Assembly (NCBI RefSeq): GCF_021025955.1
Contig: NZ_JAJNCL010000007.1
Coordinates: 186,001-250,000 of the forward strand
Reading direction: 5' to 3'
Length of the DNA stretch: 64,000 nt
DNA from: Rhodococcus qingshengii
Lineage (GTDB): Bacteria; Actinomycetota; Actinomycetes; Mycobacteriales; Mycobacteriaceae
The position numbers and the translations under genes are program-made. The notes below the pieces were generated by a model. It did not search any database, had not been told where the DNA came from, and saw only the letters and a list, made by a program, of their open reading frames with translations. Shown here one piece after another: positions 6,713 to 12,598 of this stretch. How positions within the stretch are numbered: the stretch's first letter is position 1; each line of letters starts with the position of its first letter.

Positions 6713-8458
6713 TCAGGAACCGAAGAGACCGCTCAGTGAACCGAGGCTGCCTGAGCCGCCGTTCCCGCCATCATCAGGCGCAGCAGAAACCTTTACGACG
6801 GATTCGTCCGACGCAGACTGCGTGAATCCACTACGACCCGCGAATGACGCCTTGATCCGATGATCGCCCGTCGAGGCGAAAGTGTGAATCAGTCGCGCCA
6901 CACCATCGACTCCGACGACAACGGGCTGTCCGATGGGTTGGTCACCGTCGAAGAACTGAACTGAGCCCCCGCCCGGATTGGGACTGACCGTCGCGGAAAG
7001 TTCTGTCGCGACATTCTGCTTGGCCGTCGCGGGAGCTGCCAGTGAGGTCGAGGTACTGACATCGGACGGCGCGGGATCAGACACGGTGACCGTTTGGGCC
7101 GATGCCATTGACGGCATGAATCCTGTTGCGCCGGAGTAGTAGGCCGACACTGCATGAGATCCAGCCGAGGTGAATGCGTGTTCCAGAGTGGCTTTTCCGT
7201 CAGCGCCCACCGGGATCGGGGCACCGATATTTGCAGCGCCATCCTTGAACTGGAGAGTGCCACCAGTGGGTGTCGGCGTGACCTGCGCCCTCAGCGACAC
7301 CGATACGCCCGTCTTTGCATCGGTAGGAACGTTCACGGCAGTGTCGGTCTGCTTGACGACAGGTGCGGCAGTAACCGTGACCATCGCCTCTGTCGAGTTG
7401 GAACTCTGGAATCCGTTGACTCCCTGGAACGTTGCGGAGACCCGCGCGGTTCCGGCGGTGAAGAAGGTATGCGGTAGCCGGGCAGTGCCGTCGGCACCGG
7501 GCGTGACAGGGGTACCGACGTCAGCGCCGTCCACCCTGAACTGCACGTTTCCGTTGACCGGAGCCGGATCCACCTTTGCGACAAGCTCGGTCGGTGTGCT
7601 GGCTTGGATCGAGCCGGGCATCTGGATTGTGGTGGTTGTCGGTTGGCTGACGTAGATGGTGGTCAGGGCTTGCCCACCGGCGTTGAGGCCGGAGTTCCTG
7701 TTGTCCCGCGGGGAGCAGTTGTAGCGCTCCCAGTAGTTGACTGTGAAGACATCCTTTTCGCGCTGGACGAATGTGAGCGCATTTCGGTCGTCGTCGTAGT
7801 TGGCGGAGCCGGGATCGGAAACTCGCAGCGAAGGCTTGATCTCGCTACCGGCCGCACCGGCTTTGACTGTGACGTCGACTGCGGGGAGTCGGAACTTGGT
7901 GTTGGCACCGACGATGATGCCGTCACTCGATCGAACTGCGGAGGACGGACCGTTTCCGGTGGTCCGATTCGATCCGGAGATACGTAGGTGCGTACCGGAT
8001 GCCGATGGATTACCGCCGTCGTCGATCTGTGTGACTGTTGGAGTGGCACTGTCGGATCCGAGGCCGTACGCACTATCCGCCACAAGCTGGGAACTCACGA
8101 ATTCGACGCCCGACGGGATGTCGAAGTCGTACTTGATCCGGGCCCAATGCACGACTCCACGGCTGGCATGGCCTCCGCCGTTTGCCTTCATCTCGTTCGG
8201 CTGCACGCGGTAGGTGATGGTCTCACCTGGTGCCGCGGTGGTCGGCGCGGTGATGGTGACCCCCGAGCCGAGCGTCTCGTTGAACGTGATCGGGCTTGCC
8301 GCACCGTCCATCTCGCGCACATGGCATGCAGTTGTGAAGGCCACGCTCTTGGTCTCGGGGGCAGCAGAGGCGATCCCGCCGCCGACCATGGAGAACAAGC
8401 CACCGGCCAGTACCGAGACGGTTGCAATCGCAGAGCCGCGTAGGAGTTTCGAGTTCAT
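6713..8458 (-). CDS. Secreted surface protein with three Ig-like repeats
   Basis: 581 aa from ATG at 8458 (AGGA 7-8 nt upstream). A GTG at 8491, overlapping the stop of the previous gene, is an alternative adding 11 residues. A signal peptide (MNSKLLRGSAIATVSVLAGG to IASAA) is followed by an N-terminal domain of about 230 residues with motifs CHVREMDG and NCSPRDNRNSGLNAGGQ. Three bacterial Ig-like repeats follow, each with a VQFRVDGADVG-like strand and a HTFFTAG-like turn. The C-terminus is GSLGSLSGLFGS. The N-domain is shared with the neighbouring gene. No sortase motif; likely secreted or loosely cell-envelope associated. Function unknown. Confidence 0.8.
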   Translation of the reverse strand: MNSKLLRGSAIATVSVLAGGLFSMVGGGIASAAPETKSVAFTTACHVREMDGAASPITFNETLGSGVTITAPTTAAPGETITYRVQPNEMKANGGGHASRGVVHWARIKYDFDIPSGVEFVSSQLVADSAYGLGSDSATPTVTQIDDGGNPSASGTHLRISGSNRTTGNGPSSAVRSSDGIIVGANTKFRLPAVDVTVKAGAAGSEIKPSLRVSDPGSANYDDDRNALTFVQREKDVFTVNYWERYNCSPRDNRNSGLNAGGQALTTIYVSQPTTTTIQMPGSIQASTPTELVAKVDPAPVNGNVQFRVDGADVGTPVTPGADGTARLPHTFFTAGTARVSATFQGVNGFQSSNSTEAMVTVTAAPVVKQTDTAVNVPTDAKTGVSVSLRAQVTPTPTGGTLQFKDGAANIGAPIPVGADGKATLEHAFTSAGSHAVSAYYSGATGFMPSMASAQTVTVSDPAPSDVSTSTSLAAPATAKQNVATELSATVSPNPGGGSVQFFDGDQPIGQPVVVGVDGVARLIHTFASTGDHRIKASFAGRSGFTQSASDESVVKVSAAPDDGGNGGSGSLGSLSGLFGS

Positions 8459-8487
8459 CGATGAATCCTGTTTTCTGTTCACAGTTT

Positions 8488-9630
8488 TCACGACCCGAAT
8501 CCAGGGGTGCCAAGGCTGCCGAGGCTACCGGTCCCAGGCTCGGGCTCGGACGGTTCGACGACGTTGATCGTCACGGCACCCGATATCGACTCCATGAAGC
8601 CTGCAGATCCCGTGTAGTGCGCCGTGATGTTGTGGTCGCCCACTGTTGTCATCGTGCGGTTGGCCTTCGCGACGCCGTTGACGACGGCCACCGGAGCGCC
8701 GAGGTCGACCCCTCCGTCACGGAACTGCACTGTTCCTCCCGACGGCCACGGAGTGACCGTTGCCGTCAGTTCCACGGAGTCACCGACGACAGCTTTACCG
8801 GGTGCGTCGATTCGCGTCTGTGTCTGAGCGAGGCTGGAGTCGACATTGATCACCGCGAGTGGCTGGCCGCCTGCGTTCAATCCGGCCGAACGATTGTCGC
8901 GTGGTGAGCAATTGGTGGTCAGCCAGTATTTGACGCCGCCGAGCAGGGTTTCCTGTTGCAAGAAGGTCAGGTAGTTGGCGGCACTGTCGTAGGAACCCGA
9001 GTTGGTATCGGAAACGCGGAGCATGGGCTTGATCTGGGTGCCGACGGCCCCGGACGTGACGGTGACGTCGACTGCCGGGAGCTGGAACGTCTTTCCTCCA
9101 CCGACTTCGATTCCGCCGCCGCCGTTGTCGTCGGTGTTCGGTCCGTTGCCCGCGGTGATGTTGTTGCCCGAGATACGAAGATGCGTCCCATTCGGATCGG
9201 GTGAACCGGCATCGTTCACACGAGTGATCGAGGGAGCGACCCCACCCAAATTCGAGCTGGTGCCGGCCACGATCTGTGCCCCCACGTAGGAGGTGCCCGC
9301 AGGGATATCGAAATCGAACTTGAGACGCGTCCAGTTCACGACGGATCTGAGGTCGTAACCGTCCTTGGGGACCGTCATCGGCTTGGGGGCGAGGCGGTAG
9401 GTGAAGGTGGAGTTCGGCGGGACCACGGCCGGCGCACTGATCGTGACGCCGGAATCACGCGTCTCGTTGTGCGTGATCGGTCCTGGGAACTGCCACCCGT
9501 GGCACGATGCCGTGAACGGAAGGTCCACATCAGCGGCGGACGAGACTCCGGCTCCGCCGATTACGAGGGCAACGCATCCGGTCAACGACGCGGCCACCCC
9601 CACGCCTCGGCGCATCAACGTCGACACCAT
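8488..9630 (-). CDS. Secreted surface protein with one Ig-like repeat (paralogue of the next gene)
   Basis: 380 aa; ATG at 9630 follows AAGGAG by 8 nt. A signal peptide (to VSSAADV) precedes an N-terminal domain clearly paralogous to that of the downstream protein: CHGWQFPGPITHNETRDSGVTI and NCSPRDNRSAGLNAGGQ match its equivalents. A single Ig-like repeat (about 275-360) and a GSLGSLGTPGFGS tail follow. The two genes are probably one operon; they arose by duplication and differ mainly in Ig-repeat number. The upstream region carries a palindrome at 9811-9828. Confidence 0.8.
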   Translation of the reverse strand: MVSTLMRRGVGVAASLTGCVALVIGGAGVSSAADVDLPFTASCHGWQFPGPITHNETRDSGVTISAPAVVPPNSTFTYRLAPKPMTVPKDGYDLRSVVNWTRLKFDFDIPAGTSYVGAQIVAGTSSNLGGVAPSITRVNDAGSPDPNGTHLRISGNNITAGNGPNTDDNGGGGIEVGGGKTFQLPAVDVTVTSGAVGTQIKPMLRVSDTNSGSYDSAANYLTFLQQETLLGGVKYWLTTNCSPRDNRSAGLNAGGQPLAVINVDSSLAQTQTRIDAPGKAVVGDSVELTATVTPWPSGGTVQFRDGGVDLGAPVAVVNGVAKANRTMTTVGDHNITAHYTGSAGFMESISGAVTINVVEPSEPEPGTGSLGSLGTPGFGS

Positions 9631-9900: not shown

Positions 9901-11838
9901 TCAGGCGATCGCGCGGCGCATCAGTTCTGCCGTCTCCTTGTTGAATGCGACCAGTGTGACCGTCTCGACGTCGGTCTTCGCCGCGCGAATCGCTGAAACG
10001 GCCTGTCGGACCGCATCTTCCTTCGGCCAGCCGTAGACCCCTGCCGAGATCAACGGAAAGGCGACGGTACGTGCGCCGATCGAGTCGGCAACGGCGAGAC
10101 TGCGGGTGTACGCCGACCGAAGCAATCCGGATCGGTCCTCGGAGCGCGAATACCTCGGGCCGGCGGTGTGAATCACGGCCTCGGCGTGGAGCTTTCCCGC
10201 GGTGGTGGCCACGGCCGCGCCCACCGGGAGGCCGTCGGGAAGGCTGGTGTTGCGCAATACCTCGCAAGCCTTCAGGATCTCCGGTCCTCCGGCTCGGTGG
10301 ATCGCGCCGTCGACACCGCCACCGCCGAGGAGCCTGGAGTTGGCCGCATTGACGATCGCGTCGACGGTCAGCGTCGTGATGTCACCTTCGGCGACTGTAA
10401 TAGTGGGCATTGATCCTCCTGCGTGTCCGCCTGACGCGTAGCCGACGGCTGTGTTTCCGACGGCTGTGTTCCAGAGTTCACGCTTCGGACGAGCCCACGG
10501 CATCGCCGAGCGTACGTCGTAGGGGTCACGTCCGATCAACATCGAGTATCGCGCCGCAACCGACGGTGTGCGACTGTGCGCCTGAACGCAATGAAGGAGT
10601 ACGCGCTTTCCTTCAGCCCGCAACGCCTGGACGGTGCGCGCTGCGTCGTCGAGAACGAACTCGAGGTTCGCGTTGGAATCGTGACCGTCGTCGACCAACC
10701 AGAACTCGACGTGATCAGGGGCGACCCGTCGTGTTCCCATGCGGCACAGGCTGACCACGGCGTCGTAGTCTGCAGTGGACACCGCATCGACGCCGCCGAG
10801 CATGACGCCGTCGTCGTGCGGGTGCGTCGTCAGGTGGTGGGTTCCGCGGAACCTCGAGTAATCGAGTTCTGTCGTCGACGGCCAACCGTTCTGGTCGTCG
10901 GTTCCGCCGCGAGCAGTCTTGATCGCCAGGCGAACCAGATCGGAGGAACGGTATCCCGGCCAGCCGTGCATGATTCGGCGCCAGCGCGCGGGAACCGCCG
11001 ACGCTCCCCAACGGGCGCCGAGCAACCCGCCTGCGATAGCCGCGGTCGTGTCGGTGTCCCCGCCGGCGCGTACGGCCGCTTCCAATGCGTGCTGAAGGTG
11101 GCGAGCATCGGAATTATCCGTGGAGGTGATTGCCCACCAGGCAGTCTGAAGTGCATGCACCACCCAGCCGTTCTTGGAGAAGTCCTGCGGGTTCCCGGTT
11201 TCGGCCTGATCGAGCAGCGGGCCCCAGTATTCGGCGACCTCCTGATCGGCAACGGAGAGGAAGTCGCGAACCCCCTCGAAGTTGCCGGCGACAACGGCAT
11301 GGCGGATGGCGTGGGTCCACAATTCGCAGGCCTGCCCGGCGCGCGGGTCGTCATGCGTGAGTGAACTGATCCGGTGCGCTGCCGACCTGGCACCTTCTGC
11401 ATCGTCCAAGTAAGAGAGGGCGACGGGAGCAGTCCGCATGAGCGAGCCGTTGCCTGCCTTGTGGCCGCTGATCGCCCGCGCACGATCCGCCATCGCTGCT
11501 GCGCTTTCGGAGCGGGCAGACAACACTGCTCGCGTCTGGTTGCCGATGTCCGCGGGCTTTGAGTCGTACCACCGGATGAACTGTGCTGCAATGGCATCGA
11601 GACCGCCGGAGCTTCCGATATCGATTCCGGTCGCGGCCACCTCAGCGATCGCAACTGCCATCGAGGTGTCGTCGGTCCATTCTCCAGGAGCCCAGTTGAA
11701 CGGGCCGCCACCGATCATGTCGATGGTGACCTCGGAGTTCGGATAGGTGAATTCGTAGCCGGCGCCGAGTGCGTCTCCTGCTGCGGCGCCGAGCAGAACG
11801 CCGGCCGCTCGATCGGACTGCTGTGCGGTGAGTTTCAT
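9901..11838 (-). CDS. ADP-ribosylglycohydrolase / CX5R phosphatase-like / macrodomain fusion
   Basis: 645 aa; ATG at 11838 with AAGG 5 nt upstream (a GTG 6 nt earlier is possible). Residues about 5-310 are a DraG-type ADP-ribosylglycohydrolase with metal-binding motifs GEWTDDTSMA and GGDTDTTAAIAGGLLGA. Residues about 330-455 resemble a dual-specificity phosphatase, with HCVQAHSRTPS giving the CX5R signature (Cys about 417, Arg about 423). Residues 477-645 are a macrodomain (GDITTLTVDAIVNAANSRLLGGGGVDGAIH) of the ADP-ribose-binding/deacetylase or phosphatase type. The protein probably removes and processes ADP-ribose or its phosphates in the cytoplasm. It is divergent from an NrtR-like regulator. 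A strong internal ribosome binding site and ATG at the macrodomain boundary suggest a second product or a recent fusion. Confidence 0.88.
   Translation of the reverse strand: MKLTAQQSDRAAGVLLGAAAGDALGAGYEFTYPNSEVTIDMIGGGPFNWAPGEWTDDTSMAVAIAEVAATGIDIGSSGGLDAIAAQFIRWYDSKPADIGNQTRAVLSARSESAAAMADRARAISGHKAGNGSLMRTAPVALSYLDDAEGARSAAHRISSLTHDDPRAGQACELWTHAIRHAVVAGNFEGVRDFLSVADQEVAEYWGPLLDQAETGNPQDFSKNGWVVHALQTAWWAITSTDNSDARHLQHALEAAVRAGGDTDTTAAIAGGLLGARWGASAVPARWRRIMHGWPGYRSSDLVRLAIKTARGGTDDQNGWPSTTELDYSRFRGTHHLTTHPHDDGVMLGGVDAVSTADYDAVVSLCRMGTRRVAPDHVEFWLVDDGHDSNANLEFVLDDAARTVQALRAEGKRVLLHCVQAHSRTPSVAARYSMLIGRDPYDVRSAMPWARPKRELWNTAVGNTAVGYASGGHAGGSMPTITVAEGDITTLTVDAIVNAANSRLLGGGGVDGAIHRAGGPEILKACEVLRNTSLPDGLPVGAAVATTAGKLHAEAVIHTAGPRYSRSEDRSGLLRSAYTRSLAVADSIGARTVAFPLISAGVYGWPKEDAVRQAVSAIRAAKTDVETVTLVAFNKETAELMRRAIA
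10408..10422 (-). promoter_or_regulatory. Internal ribosome binding site and ATG at the macrodomain boundary
   Basis: On the minus strand GCAGGAGGATCAATG places a near-perfect AGGAGG 5 nt before an in-frame ATG at 10410. Translation from here would give a stand-alone 169-aa macrodomain (9901-10410). The site is stronger than that of the full-length start. Confidence 0.6.
10442..10471. repeat. 15-bp tandem duplication in the phosphatase-macrodomain linker
   Basis: CCGACGGCTGTGTTT (10442-10456) is followed directly by CCGACGGCTGTGTTC (10457-10471), 14 of 15 bases identical. It encodes the repeated linker peptide NTAVG-NTAVG just before the internal start, consistent with replication slippage in a recently formed linker. 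Confidence 0.7.
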
Positions 11839-11867
11839 AGCCACCTTTTCAAGTTCGCGGAGATCGT

Positions 11868-11912
11868 TTGATCAACTTTGCGCTAACCATAGATCATGTT
11901 TGAGATAACATG
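11868..11912. promoter_or_regulatory. Candidate operator region between the fusion gene and the NrtR-like gene
   Basis: Two palindromes lie in the divergent gap: TTGATCAA (11868-11875), and CATGTT-TGAGAT-AACATG (11895-11912), which ends 5 bp before the NrtR-like start. Both are placed for a single regulator to control the two genes. NrtR proteins typically bind such AT-richer inverted repeats and release on ADP-ribose or NAD metabolites; this assignment is inference. Confidence 0.45.
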
Positions 11913-11917
11913 CAAGG

Positions 11918-12598
11918 GTGAATAAATGGACAGACACGAGCGGCAAGGGATTGACGGACTATCCGCGTCCGTCTGTGGCAGTGGACGTCGCGGTGCTGAC
12001 GTACAGCGGTGGATCTCTGAAAGTTCTGGCCGTTCGGCACCGCCTCGGTGCGCTGGCGCTACCGGGAACATTTCTGCACGAACGCGAATTGCTCATGGCC
12101 GCAGCCGATCGTGCCCTGTCGGTCAAGGCCGAGTTGGCCCAGACGAGCTTCCATCAGTTGGCGATCTTCGACCGACCGGACCGCGACGACCGCGGTTGGG
12201 TTCTGTCGGTCGCGCATACCGCGGGCCTACCGGAATCGGCACTGCCCGATTCGGCGCTTCTCGTCGATGTGTACGACGACGAGGCAGTGAGCGGACTCGC
12301 GTTCGATCACGCCGACATGGTGCGACTCGCGGTCACGGACCTACGCGCGAGGTATGCGTCGTACGTGGATCCGGACGGATTGTCGGGCGGGACGTTCACC
12401 GTCGCCGAACTTCGGGGACTGTACGAGGTGATCTTCGATCGTCCGTTCCAGAAGGACAGCTTCCGCCGGCAGGTGTTTGACGCGCTCGAAGGTACCGGCG
12501 AGATGAGCAGGCCAGGTAACGGCCGGCCCGCCGAGACTTATCGGAGGCGGGGTGACGGTGCACTGACTGCGCAGGCAATGGCATTTCTGACCGGATGA
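11918..12598 (+). CDS. NrtR-like Nudix-domain transcriptional regulator
   Basis: 226 aa, GTG start. Residues about 15-150 form a Nudix fold (VAVDVAVLTYSGGSLKVLAVRH), but the Nudix box is degraded (LPGTFLHERELLMAAADRAL lacks the REXXEE catalytic cluster). This is typical of NrtR, which uses the fold as an ADP-ribose/NAD-metabolite sensor. Residues about 155-225 are the winged helix (FTVAELRGLYEVIF, SFRRQV). The divergent partner is an ADP-ribose-processing enzyme rather than an NAD biosynthesis gene, suggesting the effector is ADP-ribose and the regulon concerns its removal. Confidence 0.85.
   Translation: MNKWTDTSGKGLTDYPRPSVAVDVAVLTYSGGSLKVLAVRHRLGALALPGTFLHERELLMAAADRALSVKAELAQTSFHQLAIFDRPDRDDRGWVLSVAHTAGLPESALPDSALLVDVYDDEAVSGLAFDHADMVRLAVTDLRARYASYVDPDGLSGGTFTVAELRGLYEVIFDRPFQKDSFRRQVFDALEGTGEMSRPGNGRPAETYRRRGDGALTAQAMAFLTG

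What the first reader, a model, noticed from the sequence alone, without database searches (positions are those of the whole stretch)
9901..12598. A three-domain ADP-ribose processing protein with its own NrtR-like sensor
The 645-aa protein joins DraG-type ADP-ribosylglycohydrolase, a CX5R phosphatase-like domain (HCVQAHSRTPS) and a macrodomain. The phosphatase in the middle is the unusual part. It suggests a pathway in which ADP-ribose is released and a phosphorylated ADP-ribose (for example ADP-ribose-1''-phosphate) or a phosphorylated target is then processed, with the macrodomain binding product. The divergent regulator is a Nudix protein with a degraded catalytic box, the known NrtR architecture that senses NAD metabolites. 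Domain identities are from motifs; the pathway is inference.
Basis: partly seen in the sequence, partly recalled or inferred. Interest (0 to 1): 0.75.

Follow-up and report, generated by a model that had tools for sequence, protein, structure and literature searches.

The report
ADP-ribose eraser fused to a phosphatase
A Rhodococcus bacterium packs an ADP-ribose-removing enzyme, a phosphatase and a second ADP-ribose remover into one protein next to its own repressor gene; the general kind of system was already predicted in print, and the repressor's likely DNA-binding site is proposed here.

Summary
The gene at 9901-11844 (-) encodes an ADP-ribosylglycohydrolase (ARG), a dual-specificity-phosphatase (DSP) domain and a MacroD-type macrodomain; an NrtR-type regulator with a degraded Nudix box lies divergently at 11918-12598 (+). 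The DSP fold holds up, as do its catalytic residues (Asp385 80 of 80 rows, Cys419 79, Arg425 80). The combination is not new: PMC9503650, section 3.8, predicted ARG systems with a Cys-phosphatase and a Nudix-HTH repressor, sometimes with Macro; relatives carry that paper's ARPP, TY-chaperone and vWA neighbours. The ADP-ribose-1''-phosphate pathway is not supported: no KptA here, no co-occurrence (3 of 24 against 17 of 127 genomes); RES untested. New here: a tandem operator, TTAGNNCA-N4-TGNNCTAA, at 11867-11886 and 11889-11908, shared with distant relatives; this protein holds the genome's only ARG and only Macro (Pfam) match; DSP changed state at least 7 times on a 31-row clade, the regulator 3. 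Best reading: a repressor-controlled ADP-ribose-adduct cleaner whose phosphatase substrate is unknown.

The parts
9901..11844 (-). Three-domain ARG-DSP-Macro gene, 647 aa from GTG at 11844 (645 aa from ATG at 11838)
10984..11802 (-). ARG (DraG-type ADP-ribosylglycohydrolase) domain, residues 15-287; conserved TDD and GGDTDT motifs
   Evidence: Pfam PF03747 E 1.2e-59; motif Asp residues invariant in the 36-row alignment A2; their role in metal binding is recalled
10459..10905 (-). Dual-specificity-phosphatase domain, residues 314-462
   Evidence: AF2 pLDDT 90.5, Foldseek to DUSPs, profile hits to DUSPs
10561..10593 (-). P-loop HCVQAHSRTPS, residues 418-428 (Cys419, Arg425)
   Evidence: Cys 79 of 80, Arg 80 of 80
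9907..10407 (-). MacroD-type macrodomain, residues 480-646
   Evidence: NCBIfam NF001664 233 bits, cut-off 200; Pfam PF01661
11867..11886 (-). Proposed operator copy 2, TTAGCGCAAAGTTGATCAAA
   Evidence: 1 mismatch to the consensus, best in the genome; conserved
11889..11908 (-). Proposed operator copy 1, TTATCTCAAACATGATCTAT, 22 bp from copy 2
   Evidence: 3 mismatches; tandem copy conserved
11918..12598 (+). NrtR-type repressor, degenerate Nudix domain plus winged helix, 226 aa
12059..12136 (+). Degraded Nudix box LPGTFLHERELLMAAADRALSVKAEL
12392..12544 (+). NrtR winged-helix DNA-binding domain, residues 159-209
   Evidence: PF21906 E 4.3e-12

Best explanation
This is a minimal member of the ARG / rhodanese-phosphatase system. 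Shown by sequence: an NrtR-type protein is encoded divergently from the ARG-DSP-Macro gene, with a tandem palindromic site between them that is kept in relatives and, at up to 3 mismatches, found as a pair only here in the genome. Inferred: the repressor binds it and shuts off both genes; ADP-ribose or a relative, rising when ADP-ribosyl adducts are removed, binds the catalytically dead Nudix pocket and relieves repression. The ARG domain then removes ADP-ribose from N- or O-glycosidic adducts, and the MacroD-type domain from ester-type adducts and O-acetyl-ADP-ribose, so one polypeptide carries every match to the three eraser families searched in this genome. The DSP domain is a Cys-dependent phosphatase that acts on a phosphate near these reactions (a phosphorylated ADP-ribose or ribose remnant, or a phosphorylated target); it is an optional module. 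Since no coupled ADP-ribosyltransferase was found, the adducts probably come from outside (phage or competitor enzymes) or from the genome's one sirtuin.
For: Domains; DSP fold and catalytic residues, in loci gathered with patterns outside the P-loop; ARPP-1, TY-Chap2, TY-Chap3 and vWA neighbours in relatives, matching PMC9503650 section 3.8 (whole section read); only PF03747 match and only PF01661 match of the genome, NADAR 0; site with at least 10 of 12 dyad positions in 23 of 23 regulator loci of the window's family and 24 of 33 others, mean 0.025 in 40 shuffles of each set; Mycobacterium smegmatis NrtR is released from DNA by ADP-ribose and shows no detected hydrolase activity (PMC6800001, passages).
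Against: No biochemistry. The inducer is inferred from distant NrtR proteins: the NCBIfam ADPR-responsive model is matched far below its cut-off (74 against 400 bits), and the M. smegmatis effect was reported at 50 mM ADP-ribose. Not tested: ARG substrate class, phosphatase substrate, phage defence. The locus has no chaperone, ARPP or nuclease among the four neighbours scanned, and none of six window proteins hits PADLOC. PMC9503650 chose its systems for absence of coupled sirtuins, yet a SIR2_2 protein lies near ARG-DSP in 12 of 80 fetched loci. A consensus promoter scan of 11800-11960 found nothing. The site consensus was read from the sequences it was then counted in, and orthologues are not independent; genome-wide, 10 places match at up to 3 mismatches against 18 for the reversed control, so single sites mean nothing. 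33 of 74 ARG-DSP rows show no NrtR in the fetched flank.
Confidence: 0.6

Rival explanations
1. One reading: the phosphatase removes the 1''-phosphate of ADP-ribose-1''-phosphate and the macrodomain binds or finishes the product.
For: Macro and phosphatase in one protein; a phosphatase for this compound is known from yeast tRNA splicing (seen only as a reference entry).
Against: KptA absent here and in the other eight three-domain genomes; phosphatase module and KptA occur together in 3 of 24 against 17 of 127 genomes, Fisher p 1; no KptA or RES among the 20 families matched by two or more of 149 neighbour proteins (40 further families were not shown). RES enzymes, the other source named in PMC9503650, could not be searched in the genome (cap reached).
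Confidence: 0.08
2. Housekeeping of O-acetyl-ADP-ribose from the sirtuin deacetylase: ARG and MacroD-type domains both clear it and the repressor keeps the pool in check.
For: One SIR2 gene in the genome; Macro part passes the O-acetyl-ADP-ribose deacetylase model; Arr, DarT and KptA all absent.
Against: The sirtuin lies on another contig (C22); does not explain the phosphatase or the ARPP, chaperone and SIR2_2 neighbours in relatives.
Confidence: 0.2
3. The DSP domain is a protein phosphatase that couples removal of ADP-ribose with removal of phosphate from the same protein target.
For: Nearest folds are protein DUSPs; the P-loop is variable and not uniformly basic, unlike the basic type recalled for phosphoinositide or RNA phosphatases.
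Against: No kinase among the 25 of 65 neighbour families shown; fold does not tell substrate.
Confidence: 0.22
4. The phosphatase is a passenger module without a necessary part in this pathway.
For: At least 7 changes of state in a 31-row clade; close relatives L014 and L015 have ARG-Macro with the orthologous regulator and no DSP in frame.
Against: Catalytic residues kept in 79 or 80 of 80 rows; fused with ARG in several actinobacterial families.
Confidence: 0.1

Closest known systems
ARG-centred system with R-P (Cys) phosphatase and Nudix-HTH or WYL repressor, Iyer, Burroughs and Aravind 2022 (PMC9503650 section 3.8; author names recalled)
   Same: ARG core, Cys-phosphatase in the same polypeptide, Nudix-HTH regulator next door, Macro as an accessory, no coupled ADP-ribosyltransferase found
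   Different: Stripped-down: no chaperone, ARPP or nuclease among the neighbours scanned; Macro is fused. The text read does not say whether this triple fusion is drawn in its Figure 7 (figures not held)
NrtR repressors of NAD synthesis, e.g. Mycobacterium smegmatis NrtR (PMC6800001, passages)
   Same: Nudix fold with degraded box plus winged helix, gene divergent from its target
   Different: Proposed site here is TTAGNNCA-N4-TGNNCTAA, there GTTTTCGA-N7-TCGAAAAC; here the divergent gene is ARG-DSP-Macro, while this genome's other NrtR lies beside nadA
DraG / Tri1 / ARH-type ADP-ribosylglycohydrolases
   Same: Fold (DraG 2woc TMt 0.84) and conserved Asp motifs
   Different: No toxin or DraT partner seen among scanned neighbours; far below the Tri1 and DraG equivalog cut-offs
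MacroD-type O-acetyl-ADP-ribose deacetylases (such as E. coli YmdB)
   Same: NF001664 above cut-off; 5cb3, O-acetyl-ADP-ribose deacetylase, E 6.2e-35; 5cb5, titled E. coli YmdB, by fold
   Different: C-terminal part of a larger protein
Small dual-specificity and tyrosine phosphatases (DUSP14, DUSP28, Tk-PTP)
   Same: Fold and Cys/Arg/Asp
   Different: 14-26% identity in the rows shown; near-invariant HPxDxGV and SLC motifs, which were however part of the search patterns

Membership tests
ARG / R-P phosphatase system (PMC9503650) | ARG domain as core | tested here: met
ARG / R-P phosphatase system (PMC9503650) | Cys-dependent phosphatase fused or adjacent (a little over 55% of the paper's cases) | tested here: met
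ARG / R-P phosphatase system (PMC9503650) | Nudix-HTH or WYL regulator adjacent (over 42% of the paper's cases) | tested here: met
ARG / R-P phosphatase system (PMC9503650) | No genomically coupled ADP-ribosyltransferase or sirtuin | tested here: met
   four neighbours scanned with Pfam, none of these kinds; KptA, Arr, DarT absent from the genome; other ART families not searched; the one SIR2 is on another contig
ARG / R-P phosphatase system (PMC9503650) | Chaperone, ARPP or nuclease neighbours (frequent, not obligatory) | tested here: not met
   absent among four neighbours at this locus; present in other ARG-DSP loci
ARG / R-P phosphatase system (PMC9503650) | Counters ADP-ribosylation by phages | not testable with these tools
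   a prediction in the paper; no experiment here
NrtR regulators | Nudix-like domain plus NrtR winged helix | tested here: met
   PF21906 above cut-off; PDB 3gz5 E 4.7e-16 over 20-215; no PF00293 hit at E up to 1
NrtR regulators | Controls NAD biosynthesis or salvage genes | tested here: not met
   tandem site only at this locus at up to 3 mismatches; divergent gene is ARG-DSP-Macro; sequence evidence only
NrtR regulators | ADP-ribose is the effector | not testable with these tools
   reported for M. smegmatis NrtR (PMC6800001, passages)
Dual-specificity phosphatases | Fold with CX5R P-loop and general-acid Asp | tested here: met
   Pfam DSPc itself stays under its cut-off
Dual-specificity phosphatases | Hydrolyses phosphoprotein | not testable with these tools
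   needs enzyme assay
MacroD-type ADP-ribosyl hydrolase | Passes curated O-acetyl-ADP-ribose deacetylase model | tested here: met
   NF001664 233 bits, cut-off 200
KptA / ADP-ribose-1''-phosphate pathway | KptA in the genome | tested here: not met
   0 matches in G000
KptA / ADP-ribose-1''-phosphate pathway | Alternative source, a RES-type enzyme | not tested

The most novel reading that the evidence does not exclude
The protein is a one-polypeptide decontamination enzyme for ADP-ribosyl adducts of its cell, and its phosphatase removes a phosphate left by incomplete repair, such as the phosphoribosyl stub that remains when a pyrophosphatase cuts a protein-bound ADP-ribose, or the 2'-phosphate of adducts made from NADP. 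To my knowledge such a repair step is not described for bacteria, but no search was made for this exact point.
Probability: 0.12. Interest if true: 0.7.

Novelty: new member of a known kind. Interest (0 to 1): 0.4.

Why it matters
It places an unusual-looking gene in a predicted class of ADP-ribose clean-up systems for which no experiment turned up in eight searches of an open-licence library, argues against the obvious pathway for its phosphatase, and proposes a specific operator that makes the regulator directly testable. Because this genome has one ARG and one Macro match, both in this protein, and no NADAR, a single knock-out would remove every match to the three eraser families named in PMC11833690 (passage). 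Other macro-fold families, such as bacterial PARG, were not searched.

Tried and rejected
KptA-derived ADP-ribose-1''-phosphate as substrate: not supported, on absence and lack of co-occurrence. Wider regulon of this NrtR: 10 sites at up to 3 mismatches genome-wide against 18 for the reversed control, so only the tandem pair here stands out. One of those hits, on contig C45, lay about 80 bases before the genome's only SIR2_2 match, which tempted me; it is inside that protein's coding frame and the protein looks to be of another build, so I take it as chance. Viral or phage homologues of the DSP module: none in IMG/VR with the degenerate patterns, none in INPHARED by tblastn. Plasmids: 172 records match the protein, none over 80% of its length. 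PADLOC: no hit for six window proteins. Promoter consensus: none. A macro-like N-terminus of the SIR2_2 neighbours: hhalign probability 13.5 over 30 columns, not accepted. Test for linked gain and loss of DSP and NrtR: too few informative pairs.

Literature: searches, seen as listings with the starts of abstracts. PMC9503650: section 3.8 read whole, other passages. PMC6800001 and PMC11833690: passages only. PMC2330246 (Rodionov 2008, title recalled) and PMC2896262 (Huang 2009) are not held, so whether this operator was listed before could not be checked.
Full report
What is there. The minus-strand ORF 9901-11844 encodes 647 aa. Pfam finds ADP_ribosyl_GH at 15-287 (E 1.2e-59), DSPc at 384-452 (E 1e-5, under the curated cut-off) and Macro at 498-614 (E 3.8e-38). 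NCBIfam's O-acetyl-ADP-ribose deacetylase NF001664 is passed by residues 480-646 (233 against 200 bits), while the DraG and Tri1 equivalogs are matched far under cut-off. The divergent gene 11918-12598 has an NrtR winged helix (E 4.3e-12); its Nudix part is matched by NrtR-type models well under cut-off and by PDB 3gz5 at E 4.7e-16. The window lies in a genome of 6.48 Mb; the nearest named match is Rhodococcus erythropolis NBRC 15567 (97% over the DSP domain).

The phosphatase is real. Since Pfam's match is weak I tested it three ways. (a) AlphaFold2 on residues 314-462 with 80 rows gave pLDDT 90.5 and pTM 0.86; Foldseek's best hits are DUSP14 (E 5.3e-7, TMq 0.70) and DUSP28 (E 6.8e-7). (b) A profile of the same rows finds a dual-specificity phosphatase (2hcm) at E 4e-8 and DUSP28 (5y16) at 1.6e-7 among PDB sequences. 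(c) Conservation: Asp385 80 of 80, His418 80 of 80, Cys419 79 of 80 (glycine in L090), Arg425 80 of 80. The 80 rows are the window and 79 distinct domains from 80 loci, which are the best 80 of 145 found. The search patterns were HPHDxGV-like and DAVVSLCR-like, not the P-loop, so the P-loop count is not circular; the conservation of those two motifs is in part selected for.

It is a known kind. Among 95 ARG rows (8 duplicate loci removed; 7 of the remaining 102 loci gave no usable ARG row) 74 carry DSP in the same frame, and 9 of those also a fused Macro. The rows were chosen for having DSP, so this is no estimate of frequency. NrtR is seen in the fetched flank (1.5 or 4 kb) of 41 of the 74. 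Genes between or beside regulator and ARG-DSP in other genera include ARPP-1, TY-Chap2, TY-Chap3 and vWA proteins; in a census of 149 neighbour proteins ARPP-1 matched 10, SIR2_2 8 and TY-Chap2 7 (25 of 65 families shown). ARPP, TY-chaperones, vWA, the Cys-phosphatase, the Nudix-HTH or WYL repressor and sometimes Macro or NADAR are the components that PMC9503650 predicted for ARG-centred systems, proposed to reverse viral ADP-ribosylation (section 3.8, read whole). SIR2_2 is not among them, and the paper picked its systems for having no coupled ADP-ribosyltransferase or sirtuin, so the SIR2_2 neighbours (12 of 80 loci; not at this locus) do not fit its template neatly. Eight literature searches listed no experiment on such a system, within an open-licence library only.

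The proposed substrate does not fit. KptA (PF01885) is found in 20 of 151 genomes, not in this one and not in the other eight with the three-domain protein. The DSP profile is found in 24 of the same 151, some weakly; both in 3, against KptA in 17 of the 127 without DSP, p 1. PMC9503650 also suggests that the Nudix domain of the regulator may help process ADP-ribose; in 53 of 55 regulators here the REUxEE glutamate set of the box is incomplete (57 rows less the NAD-type paralogue L032 and the truncated L089), so in this subfamily it is more likely only a sensor. The two with an intact set, L055 and L067, are among the five of 56 loci in which not even a weak operator-like site (8 of 12) was listed.

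The operator. Reading the intergenic regions shows TTAGCGCA-N4-TGATCTAA, an imperfect dyad TTAGNNCA-N4-TGNNCTAA, often in two copies. With at least 10 of 12 dyad positions it occurs in 23 of 23 regulator loci of the window's family and 24 of 33 others; 40 shuffles of each set give a mean of 0.025. Two copies with at least 9 positions occur in 22 of 23 and 18 of 33. The consensus was taken from these sequences, mostly those of the window's family, and relatives are not independent; the other genera are the better test, though I had seen them. In the window the copies are at 11867-11886 (1 mismatch to the 16-base consensus) and 11889-11908 (3 mismatches). In the whole genome 10 places match with up to 3 mismatches, the reversed control gives 18, and the two here are the only tandem pair. 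So the regulon is probably this locus alone. No sigma-70-type promoter consensus was found at 11800-11960. The genome's second NrtR lies divergent from nadA, as reported for Mycobacterium, whose site GTTTTCGA-N7-TCGAAAAC is different (PMC6800001, passages).

One protein, all matches to the eraser families searched. The genome has one PF03747 match and one PF01661 match, both in this protein, and no NADAR. PMC11833690 names macrodomain, ARH/DraG and NADAR as the three known families that reverse ADP-ribosylation (passage). Macro-fold relatives outside PF01661, such as bacterial PARG, were not searched. Arr, DarT and KptA are absent; one SIR2 is present on another contig. Other ADP-ribosyltransferase families were not searched.

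The phosphatase is optional. On the ARG tree DSP changes state at least 7 times in the 31-row clade around the window (29 rows of the window's family, 2 of family f4), the regulator 3 times, and Macro, fused or next to ARG, 4 times (rows sampled by ARG match, flank 1.5 kb for 30 of them, so a regulator further away counts as absent). L014 and L015 are ARG-Macro with the orthologous regulator and operator, sister to ARG-DSP-Macro L006-L008. The lasting unit is thus repressor, operator and ARG, often with Macro.

Most likely working. Repression by NrtR at the tandem operator, relief by ADP-ribose or a relative, hydrolysis of adducts by ARG and Macro, and a phosphatase step on a substrate not yet known. 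The first step rests on sequence conservation; inducer, chemistry and purpose are inference. Defence against foreign ADP-ribosylation is the published proposal; the setting of this copy (two Ig-like proteins, a dehydrogenase-like protein, a carboxymuconolactone-decarboxylase-like protein; no PADLOC hit) gives no extra support for it, and sirtuin-made O-acetyl-ADP-ribose remains a fair rival.

Noticed in passing
L046 4467-6035, L073 480-2165, L086 5177-6778, L092 4754-6343, L113 4423-6078, and parts in L057, L058, L064, L067, L068, L078, L093: A SIR2_2 protein (522-561 aa where complete, N-terminal part unassigned by Pfam) lies in the 4-kb flanks of ARG-DSP in 12 of 80 loci, in both orientations, three of them short edge fragments; SIR2_2 occurs in only 29 of 150 genomes of the window's order (the loci are mostly of other orders). 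PMC9503650 section 3.8 lists no SIR2 partner. A possible new partner of these systems.
   Followed up: partly
L055 1128-1901 and L067 2249-2947: Two regulators with an intact Nudix box, in loci without the common operator: perhaps a second regulator subfamily with its own site.
   Followed up: no
G007:C1:1571457-1573265 (partly in L011): Behind an ARG-DSP gene lie two Macro matches with a DSP fragment holding a stop between them, like the remains of a duplicated and decayed copy.
   Followed up: no
L072 2873-5650; weaker signs in L065, L077, L079, L087, L088, L095: Streptomyces-type proteins of about 890-1120 aa with ARG-DSP followed by a second, divergent ARG-like domain (two Pfam stretches in L072; weak profile hits of 12-17 bits in the others).
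   Followed up: no
L090 4004-4426: ARG-DSP of Amnibacterium with glycine in place of the catalytic cysteine, perhaps a natural inactive phosphatase.
   Followed up: no
plasmids of Pimelobacter and Streptomyces (hits H3-H15): ARG-DSP-like matches covering 68-71% of the protein lie on large actinobacterial plasmids, so the module may move between strains.
   Followed up: no
window 6713-8491 and 8488-9630 (-): Two neighbouring, slightly overlapping ORFs for proteins with bacterial Ig-like Big_3_5 domains.
   Followed up: no
G000:C22:351901-352089 (L032): Second NrtR of the genome, divergent from nadA: probably the NAD-type regulator.
   Followed up: yes
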